DNA of 32,986 nt from Bacilli bacterium (GTDB taxonomy: Bacteria; Bacillota_I; Bacilli_A; RFN20; CAG-826). Shown piece after piece: positions 782-19,499 of the stretch (positions are counted from its first letter, which is position 1; each line of letters begins with the position of its first letter). The DNA lies in assembly GCA_024408295.1 (NCBI GenBank), contig JAKSVE010000011.1, positions 1-32,986 of the forward strand, read 5' to 3'. The notes beneath the pieces are model-generated. The model saw only the letters and a program-made list of their open reading frames with translations. It searched no databases and was not told where the DNA came from. The position numbers and the translations under genes are program-made.

Positions 782-782
782 A

Positions 783-2872: not shown

Positions 2873-2907
2873 ACCTCACGTCCTTTCTAACCAATTAAAT
2901 AAAGCGA

Positions 2908-2941
2908 GAAAGGTGACCAATTGGTTAATGGTCACCTTTTC
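2908..2941 (-). terminator. Intercistronic hairpin between livJ and livH
   Basis: Twelve-base inverted repeat: GAAAGGTGACCA at 2908-2919 and TGGTCACCTTT starting at 2929. Read on the minus strand it follows the livJ stop, with only a broken T run behind it. It probably works as a partial terminator or an mRNA-stabilising 3' end that keeps binding-protein levels above permease levels, a common arrangement in ABC operons; that role is inferred. Confidence 0.6.
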
Positions 2942-2956
2942 TTGGTTTTAATCGAA

Positions 2957-4123
2957 TTAGCTATGAACGCGGTTTGGGTTGATTTCGTATTCGATTGGAG
3001 ACTTATCAACGGTCTTGTCTGATGCCCATTTGATATTAGAGCCCGTGACTCCGCTATATGTATATGTCTTGATCTCTTCTGTTAAGATCGCATTGAGGTC
3101 TTTTGCAGAGATATTCATCTCGATCTTATTGCCCTTTGCCTCGTAGTTCTTCATCATGCCATAGATTGCGTAGACACAGTCATAAGCAGATGCAGCGAAC
3201 TGGTTGAGTGAATCTGGATCGTATTTTGAGTTATATGCATCGACAAAAGTCTTCGTTGCTGTATCAGTTGAAGCTGAGTTGAAGTGTGAAAGCATTGAGA
3301 TCTTCTGTGGGAATGAGTTGACGTCGAATCCCTTGACGCCATCGATTCCATCAAGTCCGTCACCGCCGAAGAAGACTGCATTATCTGCGATCTTGCCCTG
3401 TGCTGCGCGAATGAATGTCGTTGCTGGTGTGTAGTAGATTGGAAGGAAGACCAAGTCACATTCCTTCAATGTGTTGACCTGTCCATCGAAGCTTGCGGTC
3501 TGGTCATCTGTGAATGATGCCTCTGCTGTGATGTTGTCTTTTCCTAATTCCTTAACAAAGTTGTCGTAGATTCCCTTTGAGTAATCCTGCGTTGAGTTAT
3601 ATAAGACGCCAACTTTCTTATCTTTATAGTATTCTTTGATGTATTTAGCAGCTGCCTTACCCTGACCTGAGTCTGAGAAGCACATCTGATAGACGCCAGC
3701 CTTATAGACGGCATCAGCTGTAGCGGATGGTGTTAACATGAAGACTTCATTCTCTGCTCCGCCCTCGGCAAAAGAGACGCATGCACCTGACGTGACGCAG
3801 CCAAGTGAGACCTGCATTCCGCTTTCGTAGAGTGTGTTGAAGTTCTGAGCGGCTAATTCTCCGTCGCCCTGGTCATCTTTTCCTGTGAACTGGAACTGGA
3901 GACCGTCTGCTCCCTCTTTCGCGTTGATTTCATCAACTGCCATCTGTGCCGCATATTTTACGCCTGTGCCGTAAATTGCGTATGCTCCTGTCAATGGACC
4001 GGAGTTACCGATCATAATGGCTTTGTTGTTGGCCGCGTAATTCTTTCCTCCACATGCTGCGAGGAGAGCTACTGATGAGAAGGCCAAGACAGAAGCAGCT
4101 AATTTTTTGAGTGTGTTTTTCAT
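2957..4123 (-). CDS. livJ: Branched-chain amino acid ABC transporter substrate-binding lipoprotein LivJ
   Basis: Extracytoplasmic binding protein, 388 residues, tethered to the outer face of the membrane. The N-terminus is a lipoprotein signal peptide: basic MKNTLKK, a hydrophobic stretch, and lipobox LLAAC with the lipidated Cys at residue 24. The mature part has the type I periplasmic-binding-protein (Leu/Ile/Val-binding) pattern: GPLTGAYAIYGTG near residue 42, AAQMAVDEINAKEG near 62, and SATADAVYKAGVYQMCFSD near 133. The start is supported by a strong SD, AAGGAGG, nine bases upstream. It is the first gene after the T-box leader, so its expression should respond to aminoacylation of the cognate tRNA. 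Confidence 0.94.
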   Translation of the reverse strand: MKNTLKKLAASVLAFSSVALLAACGGKNYAANNKAIMIGNSGPLTGAYAIYGTGVKYAAQMAVDEINAKEGADGLQFQFTGKDDQGDGELAAQNFNTLYESGMQVSLGCVTSGACVSFAEGGAENEVFMLTPSATADAVYKAGVYQMCFSDSGQGKAAAKYIKEYYKDKKVGVLYNSTQDYSKGIYDNFVKELGKDNITAEASFTDDQTASFDGQVNTLKECDLVFLPIYYTPATTFIRAAQGKIADNAVFFGGDGLDGIDGVKGFDVNSFPQKISMLSHFNSASTDTATKTFVDAYNSKYDPDSLNQFAASAYDCVYAIYGMMKNYEAKGNKIEMNISAKDLNAILTEEIKTYTYSGVTGSNIKWASDKTVDKSPIEYEINPNRVHS

Positions 4124-4605: not shown

Positions 4606-6033
4606 CTATTTTCCTGTTTTGTGCTTAGCGATTATTGCATCAGCACAGTCGATACCGTCTTTAATCGCTGTTACAACTAAGGACTGACCGTTCTTCATAT
4701 CTCCGCATACCGAAACGTTGTCTCCGTATTCGAATCCGTTGAGTTTGATGCGGTGATTTGTAGCGTTGAAGTTATATAACTTAATGTCTTCCTCACTAGT
4801 TCCGAGGAAGCCCATCGAGATTATCAAATAATCGCATGGAAGATATTTTTCGCTATTTTCAATATCTGCGAACTTGCCGTTTATAAATTCGACTTTCTTG
4901 ATGTATACACCTTCGATGCGATCGGTTCCAACTATCTTGCTGATTGTTGTCTGGTATTTTCTAACATCGTATCCAAGCGTTGCGTTTGCTTCTTCGATTC
5001 CATAGTCGGTTTTCTTCTTGTTTGGGAAGTTAGGCCATGGAAGAGTGTTCTCTAGTGGTGGCTCTTTCATTATTTCCAACTCATATACTGACTTTGCACC
5101 TAATCTAATAGAAGTGGCGACACAATCATTTCCGGTGTCTCCGCCTCCGACAACGATGATGTTCTTGCCTTCCATATTGTATGTGAAGTCCTTCTCGTCT
5201 AAGAGGTTGCGTGTTGTTTCTTTCAAGAAGTCGACAGCGTAGACCACTCCGCTTAAAGATACGTTTTCAAGATTCAATGTTCTTGGTTGTGATGTGCCAC
5301 AGCAGAAGATTATCTCATCATAAGTCTCTTTGAGTTTCTCTAATGGATAGTCTTTTCCGATGTAAGTGTTGTTGACGAAGATGATGCCTTCCTCTGATAA
5401 CAGTTTGATTCTTCTCTCGATGATTGATTTTTCAATCTTCATATTAGGAATGCCGTACATTAAGAGTCCACCAAATCTGTCCTCTTTTTCGAATACAGTG
5501 ACGAAATAGCCTTCATCATTAAGTCTTTTTGCACAGGCAAGTCCACTTGGACCGGATCCGATTATGGCGGCCTTCAACCCATTTCTCTTAATATGTCTAT
5601 TTGGCTTGATGCATCCATTCTTAAAAGCGTTCTCGATGATGAACAACTCGTTAGCCTTGACACCGACTGCCTCGTAGTTGATGGAACAAGAACAAGCAGC
5701 TTCGCATAAAGCAGGGCACACCCTTCCGGTAAATTCCGGGAATGGGGCAACGGCAACCAGTCTTTTGTAAGCTTCTTCATATAATCCAAGATACACAAGA
5801 TGGTTGGTCTCAGGGATGAGATTTGATAATGGGCAACCTACGTTTCTTCCATTGAATTTCATTGCGGACTGACAGAAAGGAACTCCGCAGTTCATGCATC
5901 TAGCAGCCTGTTCTTTTTGTGTTTTCTCGTCAAATTCCGCGTGGAATTCAGCGAAATCCTTTATTCTTTCATCTATTGGTCTAGAGGGTTTGTTAACTCT
6001 AGAATATTCCATGAATCCTGTTGGTTTTCCCAT
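4606..6033 (-). CDS. gltD: Glutamate synthase (NADPH) small subunit GltD
   Basis: Electron-input subunit of glutamate synthase; it passes reducing equivalents from NAD(P)H through FAD and Fe-S clusters to GltB. The 475-residue product has an N-terminal cluster region with RCMNCGVPFCQ and GRVCPALCEAACS cysteines. An FAD dinucleotide fold follows at IIGSGPSGLACAKRL (about residue 150), and a second nucleotide fold at IIVVGGGDTGNDCVATS (about residue 290). I chose the ATG at 6033 (MGKPTGFMEY). It has a GGAGGG SD inside the end of gltB and begins one base after the gltB stop. The reading frame stays open 45 codons further upstream, but that stretch lies inside gltB and is low-complexity. Last gene of the operon, followed by a terminator. 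Confidence 0.95.
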   Translation of the reverse strand: MGKPTGFMEYSRVNKPSRPIDERIKDFAEFHAEFDEKTQKEQAARCMNCGVPFCQSAMKFNGRNVGCPLSNLIPETNHLVYLGLYEEAYKRLVAVAPFPEFTGRVCPALCEAACSCSINYEAVGVKANELFIIENAFKNGCIKPNRHIKRNGLKAAIIGSGPSGLACAKRLNDEGYFVTVFEKEDRFGGLLMYGIPNMKIEKSIIERRIKLLSEEGIIFVNNTYIGKDYPLEKLKETYDEIIFCCGTSQPRTLNLENVSLSGVVYAVDFLKETTRNLLDEKDFTYNMEGKNIIVVGGGDTGNDCVATSIRLGAKSVYELEIMKEPPLENTLPWPNFPNKKKTDYGIEEANATLGYDVRKYQTTISKIVGTDRIEGVYIKKVEFINGKFADIENSEKYLPCDYLIISMGFLGTSEEDIKLYNFNATNHRIKLNGFEYGDNVSVCGDMKNGQSLVVTAIKDGIDCADAIIAKHKTGK

Positions 6034-6034
6034 A

Positions 6035-9000
6035 TTACTTTCCCTCCATGAATTTTGTGAATCCTGACATCTCAGGGTTTGGATCGCCGGCTTCTTTGAA
6101 TTGCTCGATGAAGGAGACGATCTTGGCGTAGTCGTTAGGCAAGACCTTGAAGAACTGATTCTTATCAAAGTTCAGCTGGATGTCTCTGACATATTTAGAA
6201 TTCGTATTGTCTATATGCTTCTGGATCATATCTTTCACAATAACCTCATCCTTCTCATCAAGCGGGAGAATTGATGATAGTTCTGTGTTGACGTTTACCT
6301 TGTTGTGCAAGCCGTAGATGTAGGCCACGCCTCCTGACATACCAGCTCCGAAGTTTCTTCCGATATTTCCAAGGATAAGAGTGGTGCCGCCTGTCATGTA
6401 TTCGCAACCGTGCTGTCCGCAGCCTAAAGCGACGACTTTAGCTCCGGAGTTTCTGATCGCGAATCTTTCTCCAGCGATACCTTCAAGGTAACATTCGCCA
6501 TCGGTCGCGCCATATAAGGCAACGTTACCGCAGATGATATTTGCTTCTGGCTTAAATGATGATTTTTTGGATGGTATGACGATGATTTTGCCTCCGCATA
6601 AGGATTTACCTAAATAGTCATTTGCGTCGCCTGTAACAACGATTTTAATTCCCTTGGTTAAGAATGCTCCAAATGAGTTACCGGCATTACCTTTGCAGGA
6701 TATGATAATTGAGTCTTCGCTCAATCCATCTTTCCCGTATAACTTTGTTATTTCGTTTGAAAGCATTGTGCCGAATGCACGGTTGACGTTAGAGATTTCC
6801 AAGTCGATCTTCTTGGACATCTTGCCTTCCATAGCTTCTTTACATAAAGGCAAGAGAACACGGCTATCGACGGTTCCGCTTAAGTCGTTTTGCTTATACG
6901 CCTTAAAGGTTGCGTCCTTGTTTAAGACTTGTGCGTTGAATAAAAGCTTATCGACATTGAGCTTATCTTTATATTCGTCTTTTAGCGAAAGGAGTTCTGA
7001 ATGGCCGACCATCTCGTCGATTGTCCTGAATCCGAGAAGAGACATGTATTCTCTTAATTCAGTTGCGATGAACTTCATGAAATTCATGACATATTCAGGC
7101 TTTCCTTTGAAATTCTTAATTAAATTCTCATCTTGAGTTGCAATACCCATTGGACATGTGTTGAGGTTGCACACTCTCATCATGATACATCCCATGGCGA
7201 TGAGTGGTCCGGTTGCGAAACCAAATTCCTCAGCACCTAGCAAGATTGCGATTGCAACATCTCTACCTGTTAAGAGCTTGCCGTCTGTTTCAACACGGAC
7301 ACGGTCTCTTAAACCATTCATAACAAGTGTCTGATGTGTTTCTGCAAGTCCGATTTCCCATGGGATGCCGGCGTTATAGATTGATGTACGTGGTGATGCA
7401 CCGGTACCTCCATCGTATCCGGAGATAAGGATGGTATTGGCTCCCGCTTTAACAACACCTGCGCTGATAGTTCCAATTCCGGATTCGGCAACTAACTTGA
7501 CCGAGATTCTTGCATCTCGATTTGCGTTCTTCAAATCGAAAATCAACTGAGCGAGGTCTTCGATTGAATAGATGTCGTGGTGTGGTGGTGGGGAGATAAG
7601 GCTGACACCTGGAGTTGAATGTCTTGCTTTAGCAATCCAAGGATAGACCTTTCCGCCAGGAAGTTGTCCGCCTTCTCCAGGCTTAGCACCCTGTGCCATC
7701 TTGATTTGGATTTCTTTAGCGTTGGTTAAATATTCGATGGTGACGCCAAATCTACCTGATGCAACCTGTTTGATAGCGGAACATCTATTTACTTCTTCGG
7801 TGTTGCCATAGTATCTATCGCGATCTTCGCCGCCTTCACCGGTATTTGATTTAGCGTGCAACCTATTCATGGCTATTGCCATACATTCATGTGCGCTCTT
7901 GGAGATTGAACCATATGACATAGCGCCTGTTTTGAAACGTTGGACGATTGATTCAACGCTCTCGACTTCATCAAGAGATATAGGCGATGCGTAGTTGAGT
8001 TTAAGAGTGTCTCTGATGTTTATTACCTTATCCTCAAGCAATGATGAGAATAGCTTATATTCCTGATAATCGCCGGTTTTGCAGGCATTTTGCAGGTGAA
8101 TGACGGTTAAAGGGTCATAGATGTGGTCGTGGTTGTTCTTTCTATAGCCATGCAAACCTGTTGAAAGGAGGATATCATCTTTTCTTGCTAGAGCCTTCTT
8201 GTATAAAGAGATTGTGTTTGCTTCGATCTCCTTGATGCCGATGCCGCCTAAAGAGGCTGGTGTATTGGTGAAGTACTGATTGACGAACGCGTCGTTTAAG
8301 CCGATACATTCGAAAATCTGAGCACCTAGATATGACTGGATGGTTGAGATACCCATCTTGGATGTAATCTTTGTGATTGATTTTGTGACGGTATCAACAT
8401 AGTTGCACAATGCGGTTTTGGCATCCACTTTGATGTATCCACGTTTAATGTATTGTTCGATGGTTTCGTACACCAAGTATGGATAAATAGCGTTCACGCC
8501 ATATCCGATGAGTGTGGCGTAGTGATGGATCTCTCTAGGTTCTCCTGCCTCTAAGACGATCGAGACGTGTGTTCTCTTGGAACATCTTATCAAATGCTGG
8601 TGGACAGCACTTGAAACGAGAAGTGAAGGGATGGCAATGCCGTTTTGGTTGCGGTCCGAAAGAATGAGGATTGAAGCTCCTGAGTTAATCTTTATGTCAC
8701 ACTCGATGAAGATTCTTTCTAATGCCTCTGACATCGACTCCTTTTCGTGGTCGTAGCAGATGGAGATGACATCGACTTTTATCTTCTTTGTGCTATAGAG
8801 TTTTTTAACCTTGTAGAACTGCTCTTTAGTGAGGATTGGCGAAGATAATCTAACTCTTTTTGCGTTTGCACTTGTTGGATTTAGCATATTGCCTTCGCTT
8901 CCGAGGTACACAGCACTAGACATGACGATGCTTTCTCTTATGGAGTCGATTGGTGGGTTTGTAACCTGAGCAAATCTTTGCTTAAAGAACTGGAAGAGGT

Positions 9001-10513
9001 TGAATTCCTTCTTCATTAAGACCGCGAGAGGGATGTCGTTACCCATCGCGACTAATTTTTCTTTTCCTTCCGATGCGATTGGGAGTATGCCCTCCATCAA
9101 TTCATCGTACGCGTATCCATATTTATTTTGTAAGAAATTGATGTCATATTCCGCCTTGGTCTCTTTTTCTTTTGGCAAGTCATCGATATTGATGATGCTC
9201 TCATTCCATTTTTTATACGGCTTAAGAGAAGCGTAATATTTCTTGATTTCATCATTTGAGATGATTCTTCCTGATTCCGTATCAACCAAAAGAATCTTGC
9301 CTGGTTCAAGTCTTCTCTTCTCTAGGATGTTGTCCTCTTCAATTGGGAGAGAACCCGTTTCGGAGAAGAGGATTAGATAATCGTCTTTTGTTACATAGTA
9401 TCTTGATGGTCTAAGGCCGTTTCTATCTAAAGATGCGCCGACCTTTGTGCCATCGGAGAAGATGATTGATGCCGGTCCATCCCAAGGTTCCTGGAATGTT
9501 GAATTGAACTGATAGAACGCCTTAAGATCTTCATCCATCGATTCATCCTTTTCCCATGGCTCTGGAATCATCATCATGATGGTTTCTTCAAGCGGTCTTC
9601 CATTGAGGTACATGAACTCAAGGAAGTTATCGAACATCGATGAGTCTGAGGATTCTTTTAAAATGATTGGTCTAACTTTCTCTAAATCTTCTTTGAAATG
9701 ATCTGATTTGAACAAACCTTCTCTTGCTTTGATGGAGTTGACGTTGCCTCTGATGGTGTTGATTTCGCCGTTGTGGCATAAGAAACGGTATGGGTGTGCT
9801 CTATCCCAGCTTGGGAATGTGTTGGTCGAGAAACGTGAGTGGACCAAAGCGATAGCGGTTTCCACTTTTGTGTCTTTCAAATCTAGATAGAAATCCTGAA
9901 CCTGGGTGGACACAAGCATGCCCTTATAGACGATGGTCTTGGATGAGAAGGAGCAGAAATACAGCTTTGAGTTAACTTTAAGGGCTCTTGACTCGATGAC
10001 TCTGCGTGCAATGTAGAGTTTTCTTTCGAAATCGATGCCGGCTTCAATGCCTTCTGGACGTTCAACAAACAATTGCTCCATGCATGGCATTGTCTTCAAA
10101 GCAGTTTTACCGATTCCGTATGTGTCATAAGGGATTCTTCTATAACCAAGAATCTTGATTCCTTCTTCCTCCATGACTTTGGCAATGAGTTCTTTTTCCT
10201 TCTCTCTTAAGCTCTCGTTTGGAGATAAGAATAGCTGACCAACTGCGTAGTCATATTCATTAGGAAGCTCGAAGCCCAAAATCTGGTTGCGGAAGAATTT
10301 GTCAGGAATCTGGAAAAGAATGCCCGCTCCATCACCTGAATTATCTTCTGCACCCGTGCCGCCTCTATGCTCTAAATGGATGAGGATGTTGAGAGCGTCT
10401 TTGATGGTCTTGTGAGATCTGATTCCTTTTATCTGAGCGATTGCGCCGATACCGCAGGCATCGTGTTCGTAACTTGGATCGTATAATCCTTGCTTTGCTG
10501 GATAATCTAACAT
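6035..10513 (-). CDS. gltB: Glutamate synthase large subunit GltB
   Basis: Converts glutamine plus 2-oxoglutarate to two glutamates, the second half of the GS-GOGAT cycle. At 1492 residues it is full length. It starts with a short propeptide and HDACGIG, giving Cys20 as the N-terminal nucleophile of the class II glutaminase domain (about residues 20-410). A central domain follows, then the FMN/2-oxoglutarate barrel with SGYDGGTGASPRTS near residue 1040 and the 3Fe-4S cysteines in MRVCNLNTCPMG near 1120. The C-terminal glycine-repeat beta-helix contains GNAGNSFGAFL and GDANDYLGKSLCGGKI. The start has a strong SD (AGGAGG). It is preceded eleven bases away by the ANTAR regulator and coupled to gltD. 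No frameshift is seen. Confidence 0.97.
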   Translation of the reverse strand: MLDYPAKQGLYDPSYEHDACGIGAIAQIKGIRSHKTIKDALNILIHLEHRGGTGAEDNSGDGAGILFQIPDKFFRNQILGFELPNEYDYAVGQLFLSPNESLREKEKELIAKVMEEEGIKILGYRRIPYDTYGIGKTALKTMPCMEQLFVERPEGIEAGIDFERKLYIARRVIESRALKVNSKLYFCSFSSKTIVYKGMLVSTQVQDFYLDLKDTKVETAIALVHSRFSTNTFPSWDRAHPYRFLCHNGEINTIRGNVNSIKAREGLFKSDHFKEDLEKVRPIILKESSDSSMFDNFLEFMYLNGRPLEETIMMMIPEPWEKDESMDEDLKAFYQFNSTFQEPWDGPASIIFSDGTKVGASLDRNGLRPSRYYVTKDDYLILFSETGSLPIEEDNILEKRRLEPGKILLVDTESGRIISNDEIKKYYASLKPYKKWNESIINIDDLPKEKETKAEYDINFLQNKYGYAYDELMEGILPIASEGKEKLVAMGNDIPLAVLMKKEFNLFQFFKQRFAQVTNPPIDSIRESIVMSSAVYLGSEGNMLNPTSANAKRVRLSSPILTKEQFYKVKKLYSTKKIKVDVISICYDHEKESMSEALERIFIECDIKINSGASILILSDRNQNGIAIPSLLVSSAVHQHLIRCSKRTHVSIVLEAGEPREIHHYATLIGYGVNAIYPYLVYETIEQYIKRGYIKVDAKTALCNYVDTVTKSITKITSKMGISTIQSYLGAQIFECIGLNDAFVNQYFTNTPASLGGIGIKEIEANTISLYKKALARKDDILLSTGLHGYRKNNHDHIYDPLTVIHLQNACKTGDYQEYKLFSSLLEDKVINIRDTLKLNYASPISLDEVESVESIVQRFKTGAMSYGSISKSAHECMAIAMNRLHAKSNTGEGGEDRDRYYGNTEEVNRCSAIKQVASGRFGVTIEYLTNAKEIQIKMAQGAKPGEGGQLPGGKVYPWIAKARHSTPGVSLISPPPHHDIYSIEDLAQLIFDLKNANRDARISVKLVAESGIGTISAGVVKAGANTILISGYDGGTGASPRTSIYNAGIPWEIGLAETHQTLVMNGLRDRVRVETDGKLLTGRDVAIAILLGAEEFGFATGPLIAMGCIMMRVCNLNTCPMGIATQDENLIKNFKGKPEYVMNFMKFIATELREYMSLLGFRTIDEMVGHSELLSLKDEYKDKLNVDKLLFNAQVLNKDATFKAYKQNDLSGTVDSRVLLPLCKEAMEGKMSKKIDLEISNVNRAFGTMLSNEITKLYGKDGLSEDSIIISCKGNAGNSFGAFLTKGIKIVVTGDANDYLGKSLCGGKIIVIPSKKSSFKPEANIICGNVALYGATDGECYLEGIAGERFAIRNSGAKVVALGCGQHGCEYMTGGTTLILGNIGRNFGAGMSGGVAYIYGLHNKVNVNTELSSILPLDEKDEVIVKDMIQKHIDNTNSKYVRDIQLNFDKNQFFKVLPNDYAKIVSFIEQFKEAGDPNPEMSGFTKFMEGK

Positions 10514-10524
10514 GTTGAGCCTCC

Positions 10525-11121
10525 TTAGTTTTTGTATTCAACGATGATTGATTGTGCCGCTTCCTTTTTGGTCATGCGTTCATTCATCGCTTTTCTTTCA
10601 ATGATGTGATGCGCCTCATCTTCGCTGATGGACCTACGCTTCATCAGTATGATTTTGGCTTCGTTTACTAGCTGTATTTCTTTTATCTTTTCCTTTAATG
10701 ACACCTCAGATGAGGAGCGTTTCTTGAGGCTTGCTAGCTTTTGCCTGGTCAGACATAAGATTTTCAATGATTGTGTGAACAACGAAGAAGGAGTTGGTTT
10801 TGCAAGGGTAATGATGCCTAACTCGTTTGTTTTATCGAACAATTCATCGTATTGATCCGATTTTGCGAGAAGGATGATTCCAACTTCGTGCTGATCGTTT
10901 ATTTCTAGAGCCAGATTTAATCCTGATTCATGCTCTAGAGGGGCGTTGATGATGACGACATCAAAATGCCTCTCAAGCAGCAGACGTCTAGCGTTCATTG
11001 GATCGCTAGTGATTGTCGGCGTGTTGATTTGAGGGTTATCTATTAGATTTTTAGTTATGGCCTGCGTGATGCTCTGATGTGAACAGATTATCAGCACGTC
11101 ATATCTGACCTCTTTAAGCAT
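10525..11121 (-). CDS. ANTAR-domain antitermination regulator with pseudo-receiver (NitR/GlnR-like)
   Basis: A 198-residue two-domain protein. Residues 5-120 look like a response-regulator receiver (VLIIC..., FDVVIINAPLEHESG, IILLAKSD, LAKPTPSS), but Asn59 sits where the phosphorylatable Asp should be. The acidic pair after the first strand is replaced by Cys-Ser, so classical phosphorylation is unlikely. Residues 125-140 form a coiled linker. Residues 141-195 match the ANTAR RNA-binding domain (VNEAKIILMKRRSISEDEAHHIIERKA...KKEAAQSII). ANTAR proteins bind nascent RNA and prevent termination. A related regulator lies between glnA and glutamate synthase genes in Clostridium saccharobutylicum, the same order as here. 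SD GGAG precedes the start. The likely targets are the two leader terminators at 12072-12126 and 12322-12368; this is inference. Confidence 0.88.
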   Translation of the reverse strand: MLKEVRYDVLIICSHQSITQAITKNLIDNPQINTPTITSDPMNARRLLLERHFDVVIINAPLEHESGLNLALEINDQHEVGIILLAKSDQYDELFDKTNELGIITLAKPTPSSLFTQSLKILCLTRQKLASLKKRSSSEVSLKEKIKEIQLVNEAKIILMKRRSISEDEAHHIIERKAMNERMTKKEAAQSIIVEYKN

Positions 11122-11139: not shown

Positions 11140-12057
11140 TTATTTTCCTGATATTGTTTTTAAGATATCGCTATATAGCATGTAGAAATTTGAGGAGTAG
11201 GCGATTCCTTTGATTGTGATATTTCCCTCACACTCAACCGTGTTCTCAAATGATGCGGATTGGTTTGTAAGATATTTTCTGATTGTTTCGAATCCAGCTT
11301 TTAGGTTGTTATAGTATTCGATTGTCTTTTCGCCTGGATTTGAGATGCCGATGACTTGGATTGAAGGGGCTTCGTTTTCAATTGGTGAGGAGGAGAAGTC
11401 TGCTTCTAGTCCGTTCATTGCTGCCATAGTCTTGGTAACAGATTCGAATGTGATTGAATTCTCGGCTGCGTTTAAAGCGGTGGTTGGCGATAAGCAGATT
11501 GCGTTTTGTCCAGGACCAATCGCGTGGAATGATCCGCAGGTCTCAATCTCCATCTCTAAGAGGTTAAGACAAATGTCTCTTCTTATCTTTTCGCCTTTAT
11601 CTAGCGGAGCGATATCCATCAATGATGCTTTGTCGTATGGGATCTTGGTGTTATTGCCTTCATCATCAAGTTTGAAAGCGTAGAACTCGAAACGCTGGAA
11701 GAAGTGGATGTTATCTAATCCTGTTTCTTCAACTGTATTCTTGAGTTCTTTTCTTGGTGATAGTAGATCGTTAGCTGAGATATCGCAGAACATTCTGATG
11801 ACTCGTCCCTGAGAAGGTCTCCACGGAAGAAGCGATATGGTGTTTGGGTCTGGATATAGAGTAATTTTCTTTGCCTTTTCATATCCTGAGATAGAAGTGG
11901 AATCAATCTTGAAACCCTCATCGAATGCCTTTGACAATTCGTTAGGCATGATTGAGATGTTCTTCTGATTACCATTCAAATCACAGAACACTAGACGTAT
12001 GAATTTAACGTCCTCTTCGTTTACGTAAGCTAAGACATCATTCTTTGTGTATTTCAT
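11140..12057 (-). CDS. Catalytically dead, C-terminally truncated glutamine synthetase-like protein
   Basis: First gene of the gltBD operon, 305 residues against about 440 for type I glutamine synthetase. The N-terminal half aligns to GSI throughout: MKYTKNDVLAYVNEEDVKFIRLVFCD, FKIDSTSISGY, TLYPDPNTISLLPW, FEFYAFKLDDEG, MDIAPLDKGEKIRRDICLNLLEME. Key metal and substrate ligands are lost. The first Glu of GPEPEF is Arg122 (only Glu124 remains), HHEVAPGQHE has become FHAIGPGQNA (Ala179, Asn185, Ala186), and the FGVNGSGMH motif is replaced. The C-terminal active-site half is absent, and only about 60 unrelated-looking residues follow. The frame is open, the SD (GGAGG) is good, and the ANTAR gene begins right after it. 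It therefore looks like a maintained gene, perhaps a glutamine or nucleotide sensor or a partner of GS or of the ANTAR protein. Function unknown. Confidence 0.88.
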   Translation of the reverse strand: MKYTKNDVLAYVNEEDVKFIRLVFCDLNGNQKNISIMPNELSKAFDEGFKIDSTSISGYEKAKKITLYPDPNTISLLPWRPSQGRVIRMFCDISANDLLSPRKELKNTVEETGLDNIHFFQRFEFYAFKLDDEGNNTKIPYDKASLMDIAPLDKGEKIRRDICLNLLEMEIETCGSFHAIGPGQNAICLSPTTALNAAENSITFESVTKTMAAMNGLEADFSSSPIENEAPSIQVIGISNPGEKTIEYYNNLKAGFETIRKYLTNQSASFENTVECEGNITIKGIAYSSNFYMLYSDILKTISGK

Positions 12058-12071
12058 ATTTGCTTACCTCC

Positions 12072-12126
12072 AAAAAATAAAAAACAGGCGCTCAAAGGGT
12101 GCAAAAACCCTGATCGTGAACGCCTT
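12072..12126 (-). terminator. Leader terminator (attenuator) of the GS-like/ANTAR/gltBD operon
   Basis: On the minus strand, AAGGCGTTCA (from 12126) pairs with TGAGCGCC (ending at 12087). Inside is a second stem AGGGT / ACCCT closed by a six-base loop TTTTGC, with a five-base bulge between the stems. It is followed at once by GTTTTTTATTTTTT and then the SD of the GS-like gene. No gene lies upstream on this strand, so the hairpin can only act on this operon's own leader. Confidence 0.85.
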
Positions 12127-12171
12127 TGTTCCCCTCTATATTACCATGAATGCATAGATAAATTCCATAGT

Positions 12172-12279: not shown

Positions 12280-12309
12280 TTGACAACCCTTTTCTTGTCC
12301 CCCTAAAAT
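12280..12309 (+). promoter_or_regulatory. Sigma-A promoter of glnN-amt
   Basis: Consensus TTGACA (12280-12285), an 18-base spacer, and TAAAAT (12304-12309). The -35 region sits in the small palindrome GTTGACAAC. Transcription should start near 12316, just before the leader terminator. Confidence 0.75.
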
Positions 12310-12321
12310 GTTGGCACATAA

Positions 12322-12368
12322 GGCAATGGGGCCACTATGTATTTGCATAGGCCTCATTGCCCTTTTTT
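12322..12368 (+). terminator. Leader terminator (attenuator) of glnN
   Basis: GGCAATGGGGCC (12322-12333) pairs with GGCCTCATTGCC (12350-12361) through twelve pairs including one G-T. An inner TATG/CATA stem carries the hexaloop TATTTG (12340-12345). Six T residues follow (12363-12368). The hairpin lies between the promoter and the glnN SD, with no gene upstream on this strand, so it should attenuate glnN-amt transcription unless antitermination occurs. It is also why the glnN start must be downstream of it. Confidence 0.9.
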
Positions 12369-12388
12369 CGTTAATAGGAGAAGAAAAA

Positions 12389-14473
12389 ATGAAACAAGTT
12401 CAGGACTACTTCGGTTGTAACGTCTTCAATGACAAAGAGATGAAGATGAGATTGTCATCAGATGTTTACAAGAAACTCAAGAAGACAATCATTGATGGAA
12501 AGGAACTCGACATCAGCGTCGCTAACTCAGTTGCTCAGGCAATGAAGGAATGGGCGATCGAAAAAGGAGCCACACACTACACGCACTGGTTCCAGCCAAT
12601 GACAGGTATTACCGCAGAAAAGCATGACGGTTTCATCTCTCCAGAAGATGACTCAAGAGTCATCATGGAATTCAAGGGAAAGGAATTGGTCAAGGGTGAG
12701 CCAGACGCATCATCATTCCCAAGCGGTGGCTTAAGAGCAACATGCGAGGCAAGAGGATATACAGCATGGGACCCAACCAGCTTTGCATTCATCAAAGGTA
12801 AGACATTATGCATTCCAACCGCCTTCTGTTCATATGGCGGTGAGGCACTCGATAAGAAGACACCTCTTTTAAGATCCATGCAGGCTTTGAATAAGCAGGC
12901 AGTAAGAGTTGCAAAGCTCTTCTCAAGCGAGGTTGAAACTGTTAGAACAACAGTCGGACCAGAACAGGAATATTTCTTGGTCGACAAGGAAATCTACAAC
13001 AAGCGCAAGGACTTGATCTATACAGGCAGAACAGTCTTCGGCGCTCTCCCTCCAAAAGGCCAGGAATTAGATGATCACTATTTCGGCGCTATCAAGCCAA
13101 GAGTCCAGGAATTCATGGATGAACTCAACGAAGAACTTTGGAAATTGGGCATCTTAGCAAAGACAGAACACAATGAAGTTGCACCTGCTCAGCACGAGCT
13201 TGCCCCAATCTTCTCAACAACAAATATCGCTGCAGATCACAACCAAATCACCATGGAAATCATGAAAAAAGTTGCTGATAAGCATGGTTTAGTGTGCCTT
13301 TTGCACGAAAAACCATTCAAGGGAGTCAATGGTTCAGGTAAGCATAACAACTGGTCAATCTCAACAAATACAGGCGTTAACTTACTAGAACCAGGCGACA
13401 CACCAGCAGAAAACGCACAGTTCCTCTTGTTCTTGGTTTCTGTCATCAAGGCAGTCGATGACTATCAGGACTTATTAAGAATTTCAGTTGCTTCAGCAAA
13501 CAACGATTTCCGTTTAGGCGCTAACGAAGCACCTCCAGCAATCATCTCAATCTTCCTTGGAAGCGAATTACAGGCTGTCCTCGATTCAATCGAAACAGAC
13601 ACACCTCTTGAGAAGCATGGTAAGTCATTCTTAAGAATCGGCGCTGATGTCTTACCTCCATTACCAAAAGACACAACAGACAGAAATAGAACATCACCAT
13701 TTGCTTTCACCGGAAACAAGTTTGAGTTCAGAGCTCTTGGTTCATCTGATTCAATCAGCTGCGCAAATATCATGCTCAATACAGCGGTTGCAGAATCACT
13801 CAGACAGTTTGCTGATGAATTAGAAGGCGCATCTGATTTCAACGCAGCTTTAAACGCTCTCATCAAAAAGACCATCGTCGAACACAAGCGTATCATCTTC
13901 AACGGCAACGGATACGATGATTCATGGATCGAAGAAGCATCAAAGAGAGGCTTACTCAACTTGAAGTCAACCCCAGAGGCTCTTCCATATTACCTTGCTG
14001 CAAAGAACGTTAAGCTCTTCACATCACACGACGTCTATACAGAAAGCGAGATCAACGCTAGATACTTAATTGGTCAGGAACACTATTCAAAGGTCGTCAA
14101 CATCGAAGCATTAACCGTTGTTGATATGCTCGACAAGGATTATTTGCCAGCAATTTCCAGCTATTCCAAGAAATTGGTCGATGCTGCAATCGCTAAGGCA
14201 TCCGTTGGAATTCCTGCAGATTATGAATTAGAAACCGCAAAGATCCTATCTAGTGGTTTAAGCGAAGCAATCGCTTGCGAGAAGGAACTCAAGGCTGCAA
14301 TCGCTGAGGCTCAGGCAGAAGAGAATCCAGAGAAGAAGTCAATGTTATACAGAAACAGTGTCTTGGTTCTCATGGAGAAAGTCAGAAACATCATCGATAC
14401 ATTAGAAGGCAGCGTTGAAGAATCTGCATGGCCAGTTCCAAGCTACGGCGACTTATTATACGGCGTTAGATAA
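12389..14473 (+). CDS. glnN: Glutamine synthetase type III (GSIII)
   Basis: Makes glutamine from glutamate, ammonia and ATP. The 694-residue length and motifs are those of the GSIII family: [11 protein letters not shown] near residue 190, [18 protein letters not shown] near 260, [14 protein letters not shown] near 310, [20 protein letters not shown] near 372, and [23 protein letters not shown] near 430. All active-site motifs are intact, so this is the working synthetase of the region, in contrast to the dead GSI-like protein encoded divergently. I use ATG 12389 ([10 protein letters not shown]), preceded by AGGAG at 12376-12380. The frame stays open 27 codons further upstream to 12308, but that stretch encodes the leader terminator. 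Codon use is strongly biased to C-ending codons, as expected for high expression. It is followed 23 bases later by amt. Confidence 0.95.
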
Positions 14474-14496: not shown

Positions 14497-16254
14497 ATGG
14501 GTTTTGAAATTTGGTTTCTTATAGGCGCCGCATTCGTCTTCTTCATGCAGGCTGGCTTTGCAATGGTAGAGACAGGCTTTACTAGAGCAAAGAACGCCGG
14601 AAATATCATCATGAAGAACTTGATGGACTTCTGTATCGGAACAGTGGTCTTCACACTTCTCGGCGCTGGACTTATGTTAGGTGAAGATGCTTTGGGTGGA
14701 TTTATCGGACTTCCAACAATGAACATTTTCACCGACTTCACAAACTTTGATTGGTCAAACTTTGTTTTCAACCTTGTCTTCTGTGCAACAGCAGCAACAA
14801 TCGTCTCTGGCTCAATGGCAGAGAGAACAAAGTTCCTCTCATACTGCGTCTACTCAGCTGTTATCTCATTGGTCGTTTATCCAATCGAGGCTCACTGGGT
14901 TTGGGGCTCTGGCTGGCTTTCACAGTTAGGCTTCATTGACTTTGCTGGATCAGCAGCAATTCACTCTGTTGGCGGTATCGTCGCCCTTATCGGTGCTATC
15001 ATGGTTGGACCAAGACTTGGTAAGTACGTAAGGGATAAAGAAACAGGAAAAGTCACTAAAATCAATGCAATTCAAGGCCATTCTATCACTTTAGGTGCAT
15101 TGGGATGCTTCATTCTCTGGTTTGGATGGTATGGCTTTAACGGCGCTGCAGCAAAAGATCTTTCACAGCTTGGTATGATTTTTGCAACAACCACAATCGC
15201 TCCATCAGTAGCAACTGTTGCAACACTCTTATATACATGGATTAAGAATGGTAAGCCTGATGTCTCCATGTGTTTAAATGCTGGCCTTGCCGGTTTAGTT
15301 GGCATCACTGCTGGCTGTTCAAACGTCGACTGCATCGGCGCTACAATCATCGGTTTAGTCTCAGGCTTATTATGCACAATATCAGTTGAAGTCTTGGATA
15401 CAAAACTCCATATCGATGACCCAGTCGGTGCTGTTTCCGTTCACTTTGTGAATGGTGTTTGGGGCACAATCGCTGCAGGCTTGTTCTCAACATCAACTGC
15501 AATCGTTGGAGTTGATGCAACTAATAATCCGGTCTTTGCAGCAGATGGACCAATCTATGCTTTGATCCATGGCACATCATTCGGAGATGGTATGTCCGTC
15601 TTAGGAATCCAGGCATTAGGTATCTTGACTATTCTTGCATGGGCAGGAATCACAATGTTCTTAACCTTCTTCGTGATCAAAAAGACAATCGGATTAAGAG
15701 CATCTGCAGAAGAAGAAATCAAGGGTCTTGATGTCACTGAGCACGGCTTAGTCTCTGCTTATGATGGCTTCGCAATGGTTCCTGAACATCTTGACTACGG
15801 ACCAGAAGCAATTGCAGTTACAGGAGATGTCCCTGCATCTGAAGCGATTGAAGTAAACGTCATGCCTAATGTTGATAATATCCAGCCTGGTGATAAGACA
15901 ATCACAAAGGTTGAGATCATCACGAAGGAAAGAATGCTTGAGCCATTGAAGAACGCTTTGATGGAAATCGGCATCACTGGCATGACAGTCTCCCACGTTA
16001 TGGGATGCGGCATCCAGAAGGGCGCTCCTGAGTTCTATCGTGGAGTTAAGGTTGAACCAACTTTGCTTCCAAAAATTCAGGTTGAAGTCGTCATTGGAGA
16101 AATCGCACCATCCAAAGTTGTTGAGGCAGCTAGGAAAGTTCTCTACACCGGACACGTTGGAGACGGAAAGATCTTCATCTACAATGTGCTTGATGTTGTT
16201 AAGGTGAGAACCGGAGAAACAGGTGTAGCTGCATTAGTCGGCGACAATTCATAA
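14497..16254 (+). CDS. amt: Ammonium transporter fused to a C-terminal PII (GlnB/GlnK) domain
   Basis: A 585-residue membrane protein. Residues 1-410 are an Amt/MEP channel: FVFFMQAGFAMVETGFTRAKNAGNI in the first helix, YPIEAHWVWGSGWL near residue 128, and the two pore histidines in SAAIHSVGG (near 153) and DDPVGAVSVHFVNGVWGT (near 315). After an acidic linker, residues 470-580 form a complete PII domain: ITKVEIITKERMLEPLKNAL, then a T-loop region QKGAPEFYRGVKVEPTLLPK that keeps the tyrosine of FYRG, then EVVIGE and a GDGKIFIYNVLDVVKVRTGE end. PII proteins normally plug Amt as separate trimers in response to ATP/ADP and 2-oxoglutarate; here sensor and channel are one chain. SD GGAAGGAG precedes the start. 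Co-transcribed with glnN. Confidence 0.93.
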   Translation: MGFEIWFLIGAAFVFFMQAGFAMVETGFTRAKNAGNIIMKNLMDFCIGTVVFTLLGAGLMLGEDALGGFIGLPTMNIFTDFTNFDWSNFVFNLVFCATAATIVSGSMAERTKFLSYCVYSAVISLVVYPIEAHWVWGSGWLSQLGFIDFAGSAAIHSVGGIVALIGAIMVGPRLGKYVRDKETGKVTKINAIQGHSITLGALGCFILWFGWYGFNGAAAKDLSQLGMIFATTTIAPSVATVATLLYTWIKNGKPDVSMCLNAGLAGLVGITAGCSNVDCIGATIIGLVSGLLCTISVEVLDTKLHIDDPVGAVSVHFVNGVWGTIAAGLFSTSTAIVGVDATNNPVFAADGPIYALIHGTSFGDGMSVLGIQALGILTILAWAGITMFLTFFVIKKTIGLRASAEEEIKGLDVTEHGLVSAYDGFAMVPEHLDYGPEAIAVTGDVPASEAIEVNVMPNVDNIQPGDKTITKVEIITKERMLEPLKNALMEIGITGMTVSHVMGCGIQKGAPEFYRGVKVEPTLLPKIQVEVVIGEIAPSKVVEAARKVLYTGHVGDGKIFIYNVLDVVKVRTGETGVAALVGDNS

Positions 16255-16263
16255 AAAACCAAA

Positions 16264-16302
16264 AAAAGTGCTCCAGCAAGACCATCGAGTTGGAGCGCTT
16301 TT
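16264..16302 (+). terminator. Terminator hairpin between amt and purF
   Basis: AAAGTGCTCCA (16265-16275) pairs with TGGAGCGCTTT (16291-16301), extended by two more pairs, with a T run TTTTG behind. No convincing promoter lies between it and purF, so purF may depend on readthrough. Confidence 0.75.
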
Positions 16303-16328
16303 GCCTAATAAGCAAAGAGGAATGTAAT

Positions 16329-17714
16329 ATGAGTGATATCTTTAATACATTACATGAAGAATGTGGAGTATTTGGAGTATTCAATGTTGAAAAGGCTTCA
16401 GAACTAGCATATTTCGGTTTGCACGCTTTGCAACACCGCGGACAAGAAGGATGCGGAATGGTTGTGAGCGAACAAGGCAAAATGAGTGTTAGAAAAGGAG
16501 AAGGACTCATTACAGAAATCTTTAGAAGTGCATCATCGCTTCCGGTAGGCGAAAATGCCATCGGACACGTTAGATACTCGACAGCAGGAGGCGGAGGCAT
16601 CGCGAATGTTCAACCATTCCTCTTCCACCACAAAAGCGGTGACTTCGCCCTTGCCCATAATGGAAACATCGTTAACGCCAAAGACGTTAAGGAGTTTCTA
16701 GAAGATAGAGGTAGCATATTCCAGTCCACATCGGATTCGGAGATACTCGCCCATCTATTGATAACCACACGTGGTAAAACTAGATTAGACACAGTAGCGC
16801 ATTCGTTAAAGATATTGGAAGGAGGATTCTCTTTCCTGATTCTAACCGATGAGACATTGTATGCTTGTAGAGATAAAAATGGCTTAAGACCTCTATCCTT
16901 GGCAAAATACGGAGATGGGTACATCGTTGCATCAGAAACCTGCGCAATTGATGCGATTGGAGCGGAATTTATAAGGGATATTCTCCCAGGAGAGGTCATT
17001 GCGATCTCGAAAAGCGGAATTGAGTCTTGCTTCTATTCCGAAAACAACAAGCACAATATGTGCGCCATGGAATATATCTATTTTGCTCGTCCAGACTCCG
17101 ATATTGAAGGAGTGAACTGCCATTATTTCCGTAAGCAAAGTGGAATTGCGTTGGCAAGGACTAAACCAGTTGATGCGGATATCGTCATCGGAGTCCCTGA
17201 TTCTAGCTTATCTGCCGCAATAGGATATGCAGAAGAAGCTCACATACCTTTCGAGACGGGATTGCTCAAAAACAAATATATCGGAAGAACTTTCATCCAG
17301 CCATCTCAGGAATTGCGAGAGAAGGCGGTTAAAATGAAACTCTCAGTCATTAAATCAATCGTTAAGGATAAGAGAATTATTCTAATCGATGATTCGATTG
17401 TTAGAGGCACGACATCTAGGAAGATTGTTTCCGCACTTAAAGAGGCTGGCGCAAAAGAAGTGCATGTTAGAATCGCCTCCCCAGAAATAGCTCATCCATG
17501 TTTCTATGGCGTTGACATCTCTTCGTATGATGAATTGATCAGCGCTAATAACACGGTTGAAGAGGTACGAGAGAAAATTGGGGCGGATTCATTGGCCTTT
17601 TTGCCGGTAGAAGAACTCTACAACATCTCGAAGAGAACGGGCCTCTGCACGGCTTGTTTCATTGGTAAATATCCTACCGAGATTTACTCGATTATCAAGA
17701 ATAGGAAGCAGTAA
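16329..17714 (+). CDS. purF: Amidophosphoribosyltransferase PurF
   Basis: First committed step of purine synthesis: PRPP plus glutamine gives phosphoribosylamine. The 461-residue product starts with an 11-residue propeptide and then CGVFGVFN, giving Cys12 as the N-terminal nucleophile of the class II glutaminase domain. LQHRGQEGCGM and NGNIVN follow. The PRPP-binding loop is IILIDDSIVRGTTS near residue 353. The four Fe-S cysteines of the Bacillus-type enzyme are visible: NMCAMEYIYFARPD, HPCFYGVD and TGLCTACF. ATG 16329 has SD AGAGGA; a start 13 codons upstream would lie inside the terminator stem. Placement right after glnN-amt couples a glutamine consumer to glutamine supply. Confidence 0.95.
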   Translation: MSDIFNTLHEECGVFGVFNVEKASELAYFGLHALQHRGQEGCGMVVSEQGKMSVRKGEGLITEIFRSASSLPVGENAIGHVRYSTAGGGGIANVQPFLFHHKSGDFALAHNGNIVNAKDVKEFLEDRGSIFQSTSDSEILAHLLITTRGKTRLDTVAHSLKILEGGFSFLILTDETLYACRDKNGLRPLSLAKYGDGYIVASETCAIDAIGAEFIRDILPGEVIAISKSGIESCFYSENNKHNMCAMEYIYFARPDSDIEGVNCHYFRKQSGIALARTKPVDADIVIGVPDSSLSAAIGYAEEAHIPFETGLLKNKYIGRTFIQPSQELREKAVKMKLSVIKSIVKDKRIILIDDSIVRGTTSRKIVSALKEAGAKEVHVRIASPEIAHPCFYGVDISSYDELISANNTVEEVREKIGADSLAFLPVEELYNISKRTGLCTACFIGKYPTEIYSIIKNRKQ

Positions 17715-17846: not shown

Positions 17847-19499
17847 TTACTCTGGAAGAACTGCTACCTGAGAAATCTGGAGATTGTCAACGAGTGCTTC
17901 GATTGTAATCGTGCTTTCACCCGGTGAGAGTTCGACGTCTGAGAGTTCAACTGGGATCCAGTAATCTCCAACGAGTCCGAGGCATGGAGAGACATTTCTC
18001 CAACCAATTGCAACGTCGTTTGATAATACCTGTTCTCCTCCGTCGACTTTAGCCTTAAGGATAGTTGAGAGCTTTGCGGTATGTGTTCCTGAAGCGAGTT
18101 TGACGTTAGCAAATAACTTGCCCTTAACTCCATCTTCGAGGTCGTATGTGAATGTTGCTTCCTGATTCTTTGCAAGTTTGACGTATGCTGATGGGTCTCT
18201 GACTGCTGTCTGAGTTGATGCTGCAGCTGGAGCGGTTGCCTTTGATGCGTCAATGACGTTTGCAGGATGTTCATTGCCTGTGACCTTGTCACCATCTGTT
18301 AAAACATCGATGATTGTGTCGAGCTTCTCTGTTGAAACACCGATTGTTGATAAGAAGTTATAGACCTTGTTGTGGAAATTTTCTCCTGGCCAAGACATCA
18401 ACGATTCGACATATGCTCTTGTTGAGTCTTCGTTTGTCTGGTTGACGTATGTTGTCTTACCGATGTTTCCGAAGTTGGAGAACATGTAATCTTTGTAGAT
18501 GTCATCGAGTGAGACACCGAGTAATCCGTTGACGAGAAGTGCAACTGCGCCAGTCCTATCCGTACCGATTCTGCAGTGGAAATCGATTGGATAGTTATCT
18601 CTATCACCTAAAACATCAAAGACTTTTCTTAATGGTTCGATGTTTCTGTAGATGAGGTTCTTTCCGTCCTGATATGCCCATGGGCAGAAGACGTAGTCAA
18701 CTCCAGGGATTTCAGAGACTGTTGTTGCGGTTGCAAATGTTGATTCACCGCCGGTTCCCTGTGGGCCGCCTCTTAATTCAATTTCTTTTTTGAGGCCCCA
18801 TGATTCAACGACCTTTCTTCCTTCGTCGGTGATTTTCTTTTTGTCCATGTTGTAGTCTGCGAATGAGGATGTGCGGTAGAGCAATCCATATTTGAATGTG
18901 CCGCCACCTGCAAGAGGCGTACCACCCATGTCACGGCAGTTTGTGATGCCGTCGACATGCCAGTTGCGGATTGTGCCATATAAGCCATCTCCGATGCTCA
19001 AATCGAGTTCTACAGGATAGTAGTCAGATAAATCCTCTGATCCATCTTCATAGATTCCCTTAACCTGGTAGTAGTGGGTGCCTGGAGCAAGATTGTAAAT
19101 CTGGATGCTCTTTTCTTTTCCTGACTCATAGATTGTTGGATTCTTGAAGTCGTAGTTGCTGTAGATTGCAACCTCGTAGTGGTCGAAACCATCGTTCTCT
19201 TCGTTTTCCCATTCGAGCTTTAATGGTTCTGGTGATGAGAGGTTTGATTTTCCATCTGCCAACACTGCAGCCTCAGCCTGAGTCATCTGAGCCAATTCTT
19301 CGCCTGACTTCGATAAGAATGCCTTCTGTTTCTCTGTGTAAAGAGACTGTGGTTCATCGAATGTGGTAACCGTTGTGATGGTTGGATCCTCAACCTTAGG
19401 AATCTCAATCTTTGATTCTGAACTTGTCTTGCTTCCGCCGCATGCGATAAGAGCGCTGACGGAGATGCATAACAAGAGCAATTGTTTTGTCTTTTTCAT
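17847..19499 (-). CDS. Lipid-anchored extracellular dual-specificity/tyrosine-type phosphatase
   Basis: A 550-residue lipoprotein with signal peptide and lipobox LIAC (Cys20). Residues 85-170 look like a fibronectin III-type beta-sandwich (LKLEWENEENDGFDHYEVAIYS ... NLAPGTHYYQVKGIYEDG). Residues 180-400 are a phosphatase of the IphP/Y_phosphatase3 type: ITNCRDMGG near 187, LLYRTSSF, and the P-loop HCRIGTDRTG near 309, a CX5R motif with catalytic Cys and Arg present. Residues 425-550 form a third, beta-rich module ending VDNLQISQVAVLPE, perhaps a binding domain. The substrate is unknown; related secreted enzymes act on phosphoproteins, phosphoinositides or sugar phosphates. The SD is GGGAA. 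It is oriented against its purine neighbours and has its own promoter and terminator. Confidence 0.82.
   Translation of the reverse strand: MKKTKQLLLLCISVSALIACGGSKTSSESKIEIPKVEDPTITTVTTFDEPQSLYTEKQKAFLSKSGEELAQMTQAEAAVLADGKSNLSSPEPLKLEWENEENDGFDHYEVAIYSNYDFKNPTIYESGKEKSIQIYNLAPGTHYYQVKGIYEDGSEDLSDYYPVELDLSIGDGLYGTIRNWHVDGITNCRDMGGTPLAGGGTFKYGLLYRTSSFADYNMDKKKITDEGRKVVESWGLKKEIELRGGPQGTGGESTFATATTVSEIPGVDYVFCPWAYQDGKNLIYRNIEPLRKVFDVLGDRDNYPIDFHCRIGTDRTGAVALLVNGLLGVSLDDIYKDYMFSNFGNIGKTTYVNQTNEDSTRAYVESLMSWPGENFHNKVYNFLSTIGVSTEKLDTIIDVLTDGDKVTGNEHPANVIDASKATAPAAASTQTAVRDPSAYVKLAKNQEATFTYDLEDGVKGKLFANVKLASGTHTAKLSTILKAKVDGGEQVLSNDVAIGWRNVSPCLGLVGDYWIPVELSDVELSPGESTITIEALVDNLQISQVAVLPE

What the first reader, a model, noticed from the sequence alone, without database searches (positions are those of the whole stretch)
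11140..12057. Dead glutamine synthetase retained as first gene of the glutamate synthase operon
Seen: the N-terminal 220 residues follow GSI closely, but the metal and substrate motifs are destroyed (GPEPEF to QRFEF, HHEVAPGQHE to FHAIGPGQNA, the VNGSGMH loop lost) and the C-terminal half of the active site is gone. The frame is open, the SD is good, and the gene heads an operon with an ANTAR regulator and gltBD. Known: the order glnA-ANTAR regulator-glutamate synthase occurs in Clostridium saccharobutylicum with a real glnA. Inference: an ancestral glnA was replaced by glnN and its remnant became a sensor or scaffold, perhaps reporting glutamine to the ANTAR protein or capping a GS complex. 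I know of no described function for such a truncated pseudo-enzyme.
Basis: partly seen in the sequence, partly recalled or inferred. Interest (0 to 1): 0.85.

Follow-up and report, generated by a model that had tools for sequence, protein, structure and literature searches.

The report
Dead glutamine synthetase beside RNA antiterminator
A gut bacterium keeps a pruned, enzymatically dead glutamine synthetase next to an RNA-binding antiterminator gene, and a survey of relatives shows the same pairing in many Clostridia, which suggests that an enzyme was turned step by step into a dedicated part of the nitrogen switch.

Summary
Window 11140-12057 (minus, 305 aa) is a glutamine-synthetase-type-I (GSI) protein that has lost the metal and substrate residues and heads psGS-ANTAR-gltB-gltD. 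It is pruned rather than truncated: the predicted model (pLDDT 92.7) overlays GSI over 302 of 305 residues, with active-site loops and the C-terminal tail cut out. It is not private decay. Three congeners carry it in the same place (48-63% identity, dN/dS about 0.16), and in 37 genomes of the genus ANTAR occurs in exactly those four. Its closest kin are ~402-aa GSI-like proteins of Clostridia, with ANTAR directly downstream in 69 of 77 loci. None of 73 keeps the catalytic flap glutamate; the rooted tree reads full-length GSI+ANTAR, then 402 aa, then the Bacilli copies (355, 305). All 77 ANTAR partners have a receiver without its phospho-aspartate, so their input cannot be ordinary phosphorylation. 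Both divergent operons (psGS and glnN/GSIII) start with an ANTAR-type hexaloop overlapping a terminator; across 1.77 Mb such elements number 54 with A1/G4 loops against 0-5 for every other loop class. Best reading: psGS is a non-catalytic partner of the ANTAR antiterminator controlling ammonium assimilation. The protein-protein step is inferred, not shown.

The parts
11140..12057 (-). psGS: 305-aa pruned, catalytically dead GSI homologue
10525..11121 (-). ANTAR antiterminator with pseudo-receiver (Asn in place of the phospho-Asp)
6035..10513 (-). gltB, glutamate synthase large subunit
4606..6033 (-). gltD-type small subunit (start inferred)
12118..12131 (-). ANTAR-type hexaloop hairpin GAAC[AAAGGC]GTTC in the psGS leader; identical in four species
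12078..12125 (-). intrinsic terminator overlapping the hexaloop (stem 12125-12086, then U tract), mutually exclusive with it
12138..12143 (-). probable -10 box TAATAT, 6 nt before the hexaloop hairpin
   Evidence: by eye and by comparison with congeners
12322..12333 (+). hexaloop hairpin GGC[AATGGG]GCC in the glnN leader
12322..12369 (+). intrinsic terminator containing that hexaloop (stem 12322-12361, then U tract)
12280..12309 (+). probable glnN promoter TTGACA-18-TAAAAT
   Evidence: read
12390..14473 (+). glnN, type III glutamine synthetase (the only active-type GS found in this incomplete genome)
14497..16254 (+). ammonium transporter fused to a PII domain

Best explanation
psGS is a pseudoenzyme that works as the regulatory partner of the ANTAR antiterminator encoded directly after it. 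SHOWN by sequence: the catalytic site is destroyed, the GS fold is kept (predicted), the gene is conserved and stays beside ANTAR, the ANTAR receiver cannot be phosphorylated at the usual Asp, and both divergent operons (psGS-ANTAR-gltBD and glnN-amt/PII) begin with an A1/G4 hexaloop overlapping a terminator. INFERRED: when nitrogen is short, ANTAR binds the hexaloop, blocks the terminator and switches on GSIII, Amt and glutamate synthase; when nitrogen is ample, the GS-like partner binds the pseudo-receiver and holds ANTAR inactive, as AmiC holds AmiR and NasS holds NasT. Because psGS and ANTAR lie in an antiterminated operon, this gives negative feedback. In the 402-aa Clostridial forms the glutamate/ATP pocket largely remains, so they may sense glutamate or glutamine directly; in the window copy the pocket is gone, so it would act as a fixed brake or relay a signal from another protein (GSIII or the Amt-PII domain).
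For: ANTAR and psGS co-occur in exactly 4 of 37 genus genomes and ANTAR in 4 of 279 of the order. In loci fetched by GS similarity alone, ANTAR lies directly downstream in 69 of 77 Clostridial loci and in all 29 loci with downstream sequence of a class-wide sample. 77 of 77 ANTARs lack the phospho-Asp (73 Asn, 4 Ser) and the first acidic residue. Graded loss with ANTAR kept throughout: R62 lost but E304 kept in nearly all full-length forms, E304 to K/T in 72 of 73 short forms (gap in one), metal and substrate residues lost in the four Bacilli copies; the tree needs only the minimum number of changes. 20 of 20 tested short-GS genomes carry GSIII, only 1 a full-length GSI. Purifying selection. 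Hexaloop-terminator elements: 54 A..G against 0-5 for 15 other loop classes; exactly two in the window, in the two divergent leaders. Co-divergence of GS-like and ANTAR proteins r = 0.88 (not corrected for phylogeny). Literature: in C. thermocellum the ANTAR gene Clo1313_2030 adjoins GSI Clo1313_2031 in the glutamate synthase cluster (PMC4676874; PMC9888227), and a paper cited there by title reports that deleting type I GS 'deregulates nitrogen metabolism' (PMID 28400329).
Against: No binding, expression or genetic data for any short form. No ligand pocket remains in the window copy, so what it could sense is unknown. Adjacency also fits simple co-transcription with a different job. The Bacilli copies evolve faster than gltB (dN/dS 0.16 against 0.04), mostly in the pruned C-terminal half (0.38). 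I did not see the C. thermocellum sequence, so its stage in the series is unknown. ANTAR antitermination described so far uses two hexaloops; only one is found here.
Confidence: 0.62

Rival explanations
1. psGS modulates GSIII (or another enzyme) directly, as a subunit or inhibitor, and sits with ANTAR only because they are co-transcribed.
For: Short-GS genomes nearly always carry GSIII; glnN is divergently adjacent in the window, G153 and several Clostridia.
Against: The constant neighbour is ANTAR, not glnN: in G159 the divergent gene is amt, and in many Clostridia GSIII lies elsewhere. No known hetero-oligomer of GSI-type and GSIII-type subunits (own knowledge).
Confidence: 0.13
2. The 402-aa forms are still active ligases for another amine, and the window copy is a late derivative in which that activity is being lost.
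For: 402-aa forms keep E189, H245, R298 and R335 in 72 of 73; GS-like ligases for other amines differ at the ammonium site (own knowledge).
Against: E134 is Gln in 16, E333 Gln in 16 and E196 Lys in 10 of 73, so metal ligands are not held; the gene sits in ammonium-assimilation operons beside ANTAR; the window copy lacks all but one metal ligand.
Confidence: 0.12
3. In the window's genus psGS is a slowly decaying passenger of a transferred operon and only ANTAR still works.
For: Shrinkage 402 to 355 to 305 aa, faster evolution than gltB, C-terminal half least conserved.
Against: Four species with intact frames; dN/dS 0.11 over residues 1-230; third codon positions differ 50% against 16-26% at the first two; confident compact fold.
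Confidence: 0.1

Closest known systems
GlnA, type I glutamine synthetase
   Same: fold over 302 of 305 residues (Z 34.2, rmsd 1.9 to P. polymyxa GS); Pfam Gln-synt_N and Gln-synt_C
   Different: no working metal or substrate site, catalytic loops and C-terminal thong removed, below the GlnA equivalog score
glnA-nitR cluster of Clostridium saccharobutylicum (NitR, ANTAR)
   Same: ANTAR protein controlling GS/GOGAT genes by antitermination under nitrogen limitation (PMC6316151)
AmiC-AmiR and NasS-NasT
   Same: ANTAR protein with a receiver controlled by a non-kinase ligand-binding partner (PMC3369936, PMC3795266); pseudo-receiver as in AmiR
   Different: the partners there have ligand-binding-protein folds; here a glutamine synthetase fold
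GS-GlnR / GS-TnrA of Bacilli
   Same: glutamine synthetase used as the nitrogen sensor for a regulator (PMC9249791)
   Different: the E flap, R62 and thong helices that bind GlnR are exactly what is lost here, and the regulator binds RNA
EutV dual-hexaloop ANTAR switch
   Same: hexaloop with A1 and G4 mutually exclusive with a terminator (PMC3369931)
   Different: one hexaloop at the 5' end of the transcript, no upstream partner hairpin

Membership tests
type I glutamine synthetase (GlnA) | GS fold (beta-grasp plus catalytic barrel) | tested here: met
type I glutamine synthetase (GlnA) | metal ligands E132, E134, E189, E196, H245, E333 (B. subtilis numbers) | tested here: not met
   only E134 kept in the window copy; alignment of 93 proteins
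type I glutamine synthetase (GlnA) | score over the GlnA equivalog cut-off (429 bits) | tested here: not met
   109 bits; 402-aa relatives 201-349 bits
ANTAR antiterminators | C-terminal ANTAR domain after a receiver-like domain | tested here: met
ANTAR antiterminators | target RNA: hexaloop with A1 and G4 mutually exclusive with a terminator | tested here: met
ANTAR antiterminators (EutV type) | two hexaloops, P1 and P2 | tested here: not met
   no A1/G4 hairpin in the 45 nt upstream of any of 67 elements
ANTAR antiterminators (EutV type) | phosphorylatable receiver Asp | tested here: not met
   Asn 73, Ser 4 of 77
sensor-ANTAR pairs (AmiC-AmiR, NasS-NasT) | sensor gene adjacent to an ANTAR gene | tested here: met
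sensor-ANTAR pairs (AmiC-AmiR, NasS-NasT) | physical complex released by ligand | not testable with these tools
   needs protein biochemistry
GS-GlnR/TnrA sensing | E flap, R62 and C-terminal thong that bind the regulator | tested here: not met
pseudogene | no selective constraint | tested here: not met
   dN/dS about 0.16, four intact frames

The most novel reading that the evidence does not exclude
A widespread lineage of glutamine synthetases in Clostridia was converted from enzyme to dedicated ANTAR-partner sensor, leaving catalysis to GSIII; intermediate stages survive, and in one Bacilli genus even the ligand pocket was discarded, leaving a bare scaffold that controls a single-hexaloop antitermination regulon for ammonium assimilation.
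Probability: 0.5. Interest if true: 0.85.

Novelty: new variant of a known kind. Interest (0 to 1): 0.74.

Why it matters
What signal reaches the many ANTAR proteins whose receiver cannot be phosphorylated is, as far as I know, open for clostridial nitrogen control. This gives a concrete candidate, a GS-derived pseudoenzyme, with a preserved evolutionary series from full-length GSI to bare scaffold, and a defined set of target leaders (GSIII, Amt, glutamate synthase). It would also mean that part of the genes annotated 'type I glutamine synthetase' in gut and rumen Clostridia are regulators, not enzymes: about 19 of 196 sampled class genomes carry the short form (my count). It offers a regulatory reading of the reported C. 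thermocellum deletion.

Tried and rejected
Single-protein scan of genome contigs and a viral-contig scan found nothing. Rfam at permissive threshold gave only chance matches, no ANTAR family. A dual-hexaloop scan of the leaders was at chance level (2 of 81 against 1.6 shuffled), so the dual model was dropped for the single-hexaloop model. The 14-mer motif alone is not a good regulon detector: with one mismatch it appears in ANTAR-less genomes too. Sequencing error hiding a full GS: rejected (G201). Local decay of the genus's own glnA: rejected, own-order GSI is 32-38% identical while Clostridial short forms reach about 50% over the first 230 residues. A first pass over loci L153-L182 ignored strand and was redone (then 96). 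VIA-align rows for the ANTAR model cover only the receiver part, so its ANTAR domain rests on Pfam.

Full report
OBSERVATION. The minus-strand ORF 11140-12057 encodes 305 aa with an ATG start and matches Gln-synt_N and Gln-synt_C and solved GSI structures over residues 2-226 (E 1e-41). It heads psGS-ANTAR-gltB-gltD and faces glnN (GSIII) and an Amt-PII fusion on the other strand. The genome held (1.02 Mb, about 64% complete) has no Gln-synt_C match other than GSIII and this gene.

ANATOMY OF THE PROTEIN. On an alignment with 16 full-length GSI, the window copy keeps only E134 of the six metal ligands and has lost R298, E304, R316 and R335 (B. subtilis numbers, assigned by motif). It is internally pruned: the loop after NGSGMH and the R-loop/E-flap stretch are removed, but strands and helices after residue 230 still align with GSI. 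The AlphaFold2 model (28 sequences) has mean pLDDT 92.7 and pTM 0.91; it overlays P. polymyxa GS over 302 residues at 1.9 A, Z 34.2, spanning GS residues 1-355.

IS IT CONSERVED? A family-wide search gave two congeners, G153 (357 aa) and G159 (355 aa); a genus-wide profile search added G201 (306 aa). All four have the order psGS-ANTAR-gltB. Among 37 genus genomes ANTAR occurs in exactly these four, and in 4 of 279 of the order; if independent, the chance of that overlap is 1 in 66,045, but one acquisition may explain all four. NG86 dN/dS between the window and G201 is 0.16 (0.11 for residues 1-230, 0.38 after), against 0.04 for gltB; dS is near saturation, so the numbers are rough, but differences at codon positions 1, 2, 3 (0.29, 0.20, 0.51) show purifying selection directly.

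THE WIDER FAMILY. A profile scan of genome contigs brought 80 loci, three of them the Bacilli congeners and 77 mostly Clostridia. Their GS-like ORFs are about 402 aa, and ANTAR follows within about 330 bp in 69 of 77, three of the exceptions being cut by contig or locus ends. In 73 of them the flap glutamate E304 is Lys in 65, Thr in 7, a gap in 1; R62 is lost in all; E189, H245, R298 and R335 are kept in 72; E134 is Gln in 16, E333 Gln in 16, E196 Lys in 10. Twenty of 20 such genomes carry GSIII, one a full-length GSI. In the loci read in detail they lie at the end of a split, ferredoxin-type glutamate synthase operon (L078, L089).

THE SERIES. In a class-wide sample of 196 genomes the 30 best matches include full-length 430-439-aa GSI with ANTAR directly behind. 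These have lost R62 but, with one exception (L169, Arg), keep E304, and most keep the C-terminal thong; the ~402-aa forms have lost E304, about 10 residues of the 246-297 loop and the thong (L182 is cut by the contig end). Rooted on ordinary GSI, the tree orders them GSI, full-length+ANTAR, short, Bacilli, with the minimum of three changes; a larger tree nests the four Bacilli copies beside a short form (99/97), with long branches that call for caution. I read this as one loss of catalysis in an ANTAR-linked GSI lineage, then transfer to this Bacilli genus and further pruning.

THE ANTAR PARTNER. All 77 ANTARs lack the phospho-Asp (73 Asn, 4 Ser) and have Ser or Cys at the first acidic position; the receiver fold is kept. 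AmiR likewise has a non-phosphorylated pseudo-receiver controlled by AmiC (PMC3369936), and NasS holds NasT (PMC3795266). This makes a protein partner the likely input, and the GS-like protein is the constant neighbour.

THE RNA SWITCH. The psGS leader in all four species holds GAAC[AAAGGC]GTTC, whose loop and 3' stem are also the 5' arm of a terminator. ANTAR targets are hexaloops with A at 1 and G at 4 (PMC3369931). A scan of 1.77 Mb for hexaloop hairpins overlapping a terminator gave 54 elements with A1/G4 and 0-5 for each of the other 15 loop classes. They precede short-GS, glnN, amt and glutamate synthase genes. In the window there are two, one in each divergent leader. In most elements a promoter -10 box lies 6-13 nt before the hairpin and no second A1/G4 hairpin exists upstream (0 of 67). 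EutV binds a single hexaloop but needed two for antitermination (PMC8934654), so a one-hairpin switch is a departure that needs testing.

MECHANISM. Proposed: ANTAR free = terminators blocked, GSIII, Amt and glutamate synthase made; ANTAR held by the GS-like partner = off. The direction rests on NitR being an inducer under nitrogen limitation (PMC6316151) and on the report that deleting the ANTAR-neighbouring type I GS of C. thermocellum deregulates nitrogen metabolism (title of PMID 28400329, cited in PMC9888227 and PMC5887222; the paper itself was not available). The loss of the flap and thong that bind GlnR and TnrA in Bacilli (PMC9249791) means the interface must differ; the N-terminal beta-grasp domain and core are the best conserved parts between window and short forms (0.54 and 0.47 against 0.13 for the pruned part) and are my candidate surface (inference).

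LIMITS. No experiment supports the psGS-ANTAR contact. The window copy has no ligand pocket. Element detection required a stem and a terminator by design; only the loop letters are an unbiased test. The literature library holds no paper on a short GS paired with ANTAR that my ten searches could find; subscription papers are not covered.

Noticed in passing
window 22692-24098 (-): A PurF-like/GATase_7 protein that starts MGGFFGVV, without the N-terminal Cys nucleophile, in a purine cluster that also has a normal purF (16290-17714): possibly a second dead amidotransferase.
   Followed up: partly
window 17847-19499 (-): Lipoprotein-like ORF with a Y_phosphatase3 domain.
   Followed up: no
window 1-4123 (-): Transporter-like genes with a Peripla_BP_6 binding protein (2957-4123) downstream of gltD on the same strand; could belong to the nitrogen regulon, but no hexaloop element was found there.
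   Followed up: partly
L137 1852-3063 and 6030-7259: Two short-GS genes in one locus, only one of them next to ANTAR; similar doubling in G296.
   Followed up: no
G204:C14:775-788 (L057): An exact GAACAAAGGCGTTC in a congener without ANTAR or psGS; unexplained, may be chance.
   Followed up: no
L101, L102, L113, L121, L133, L137, L139, about 90-230 bp upstream of the short-GS gene: Two hexaloop-terminator elements in series in one leader, possibly a two-step gate.
   Followed up: no
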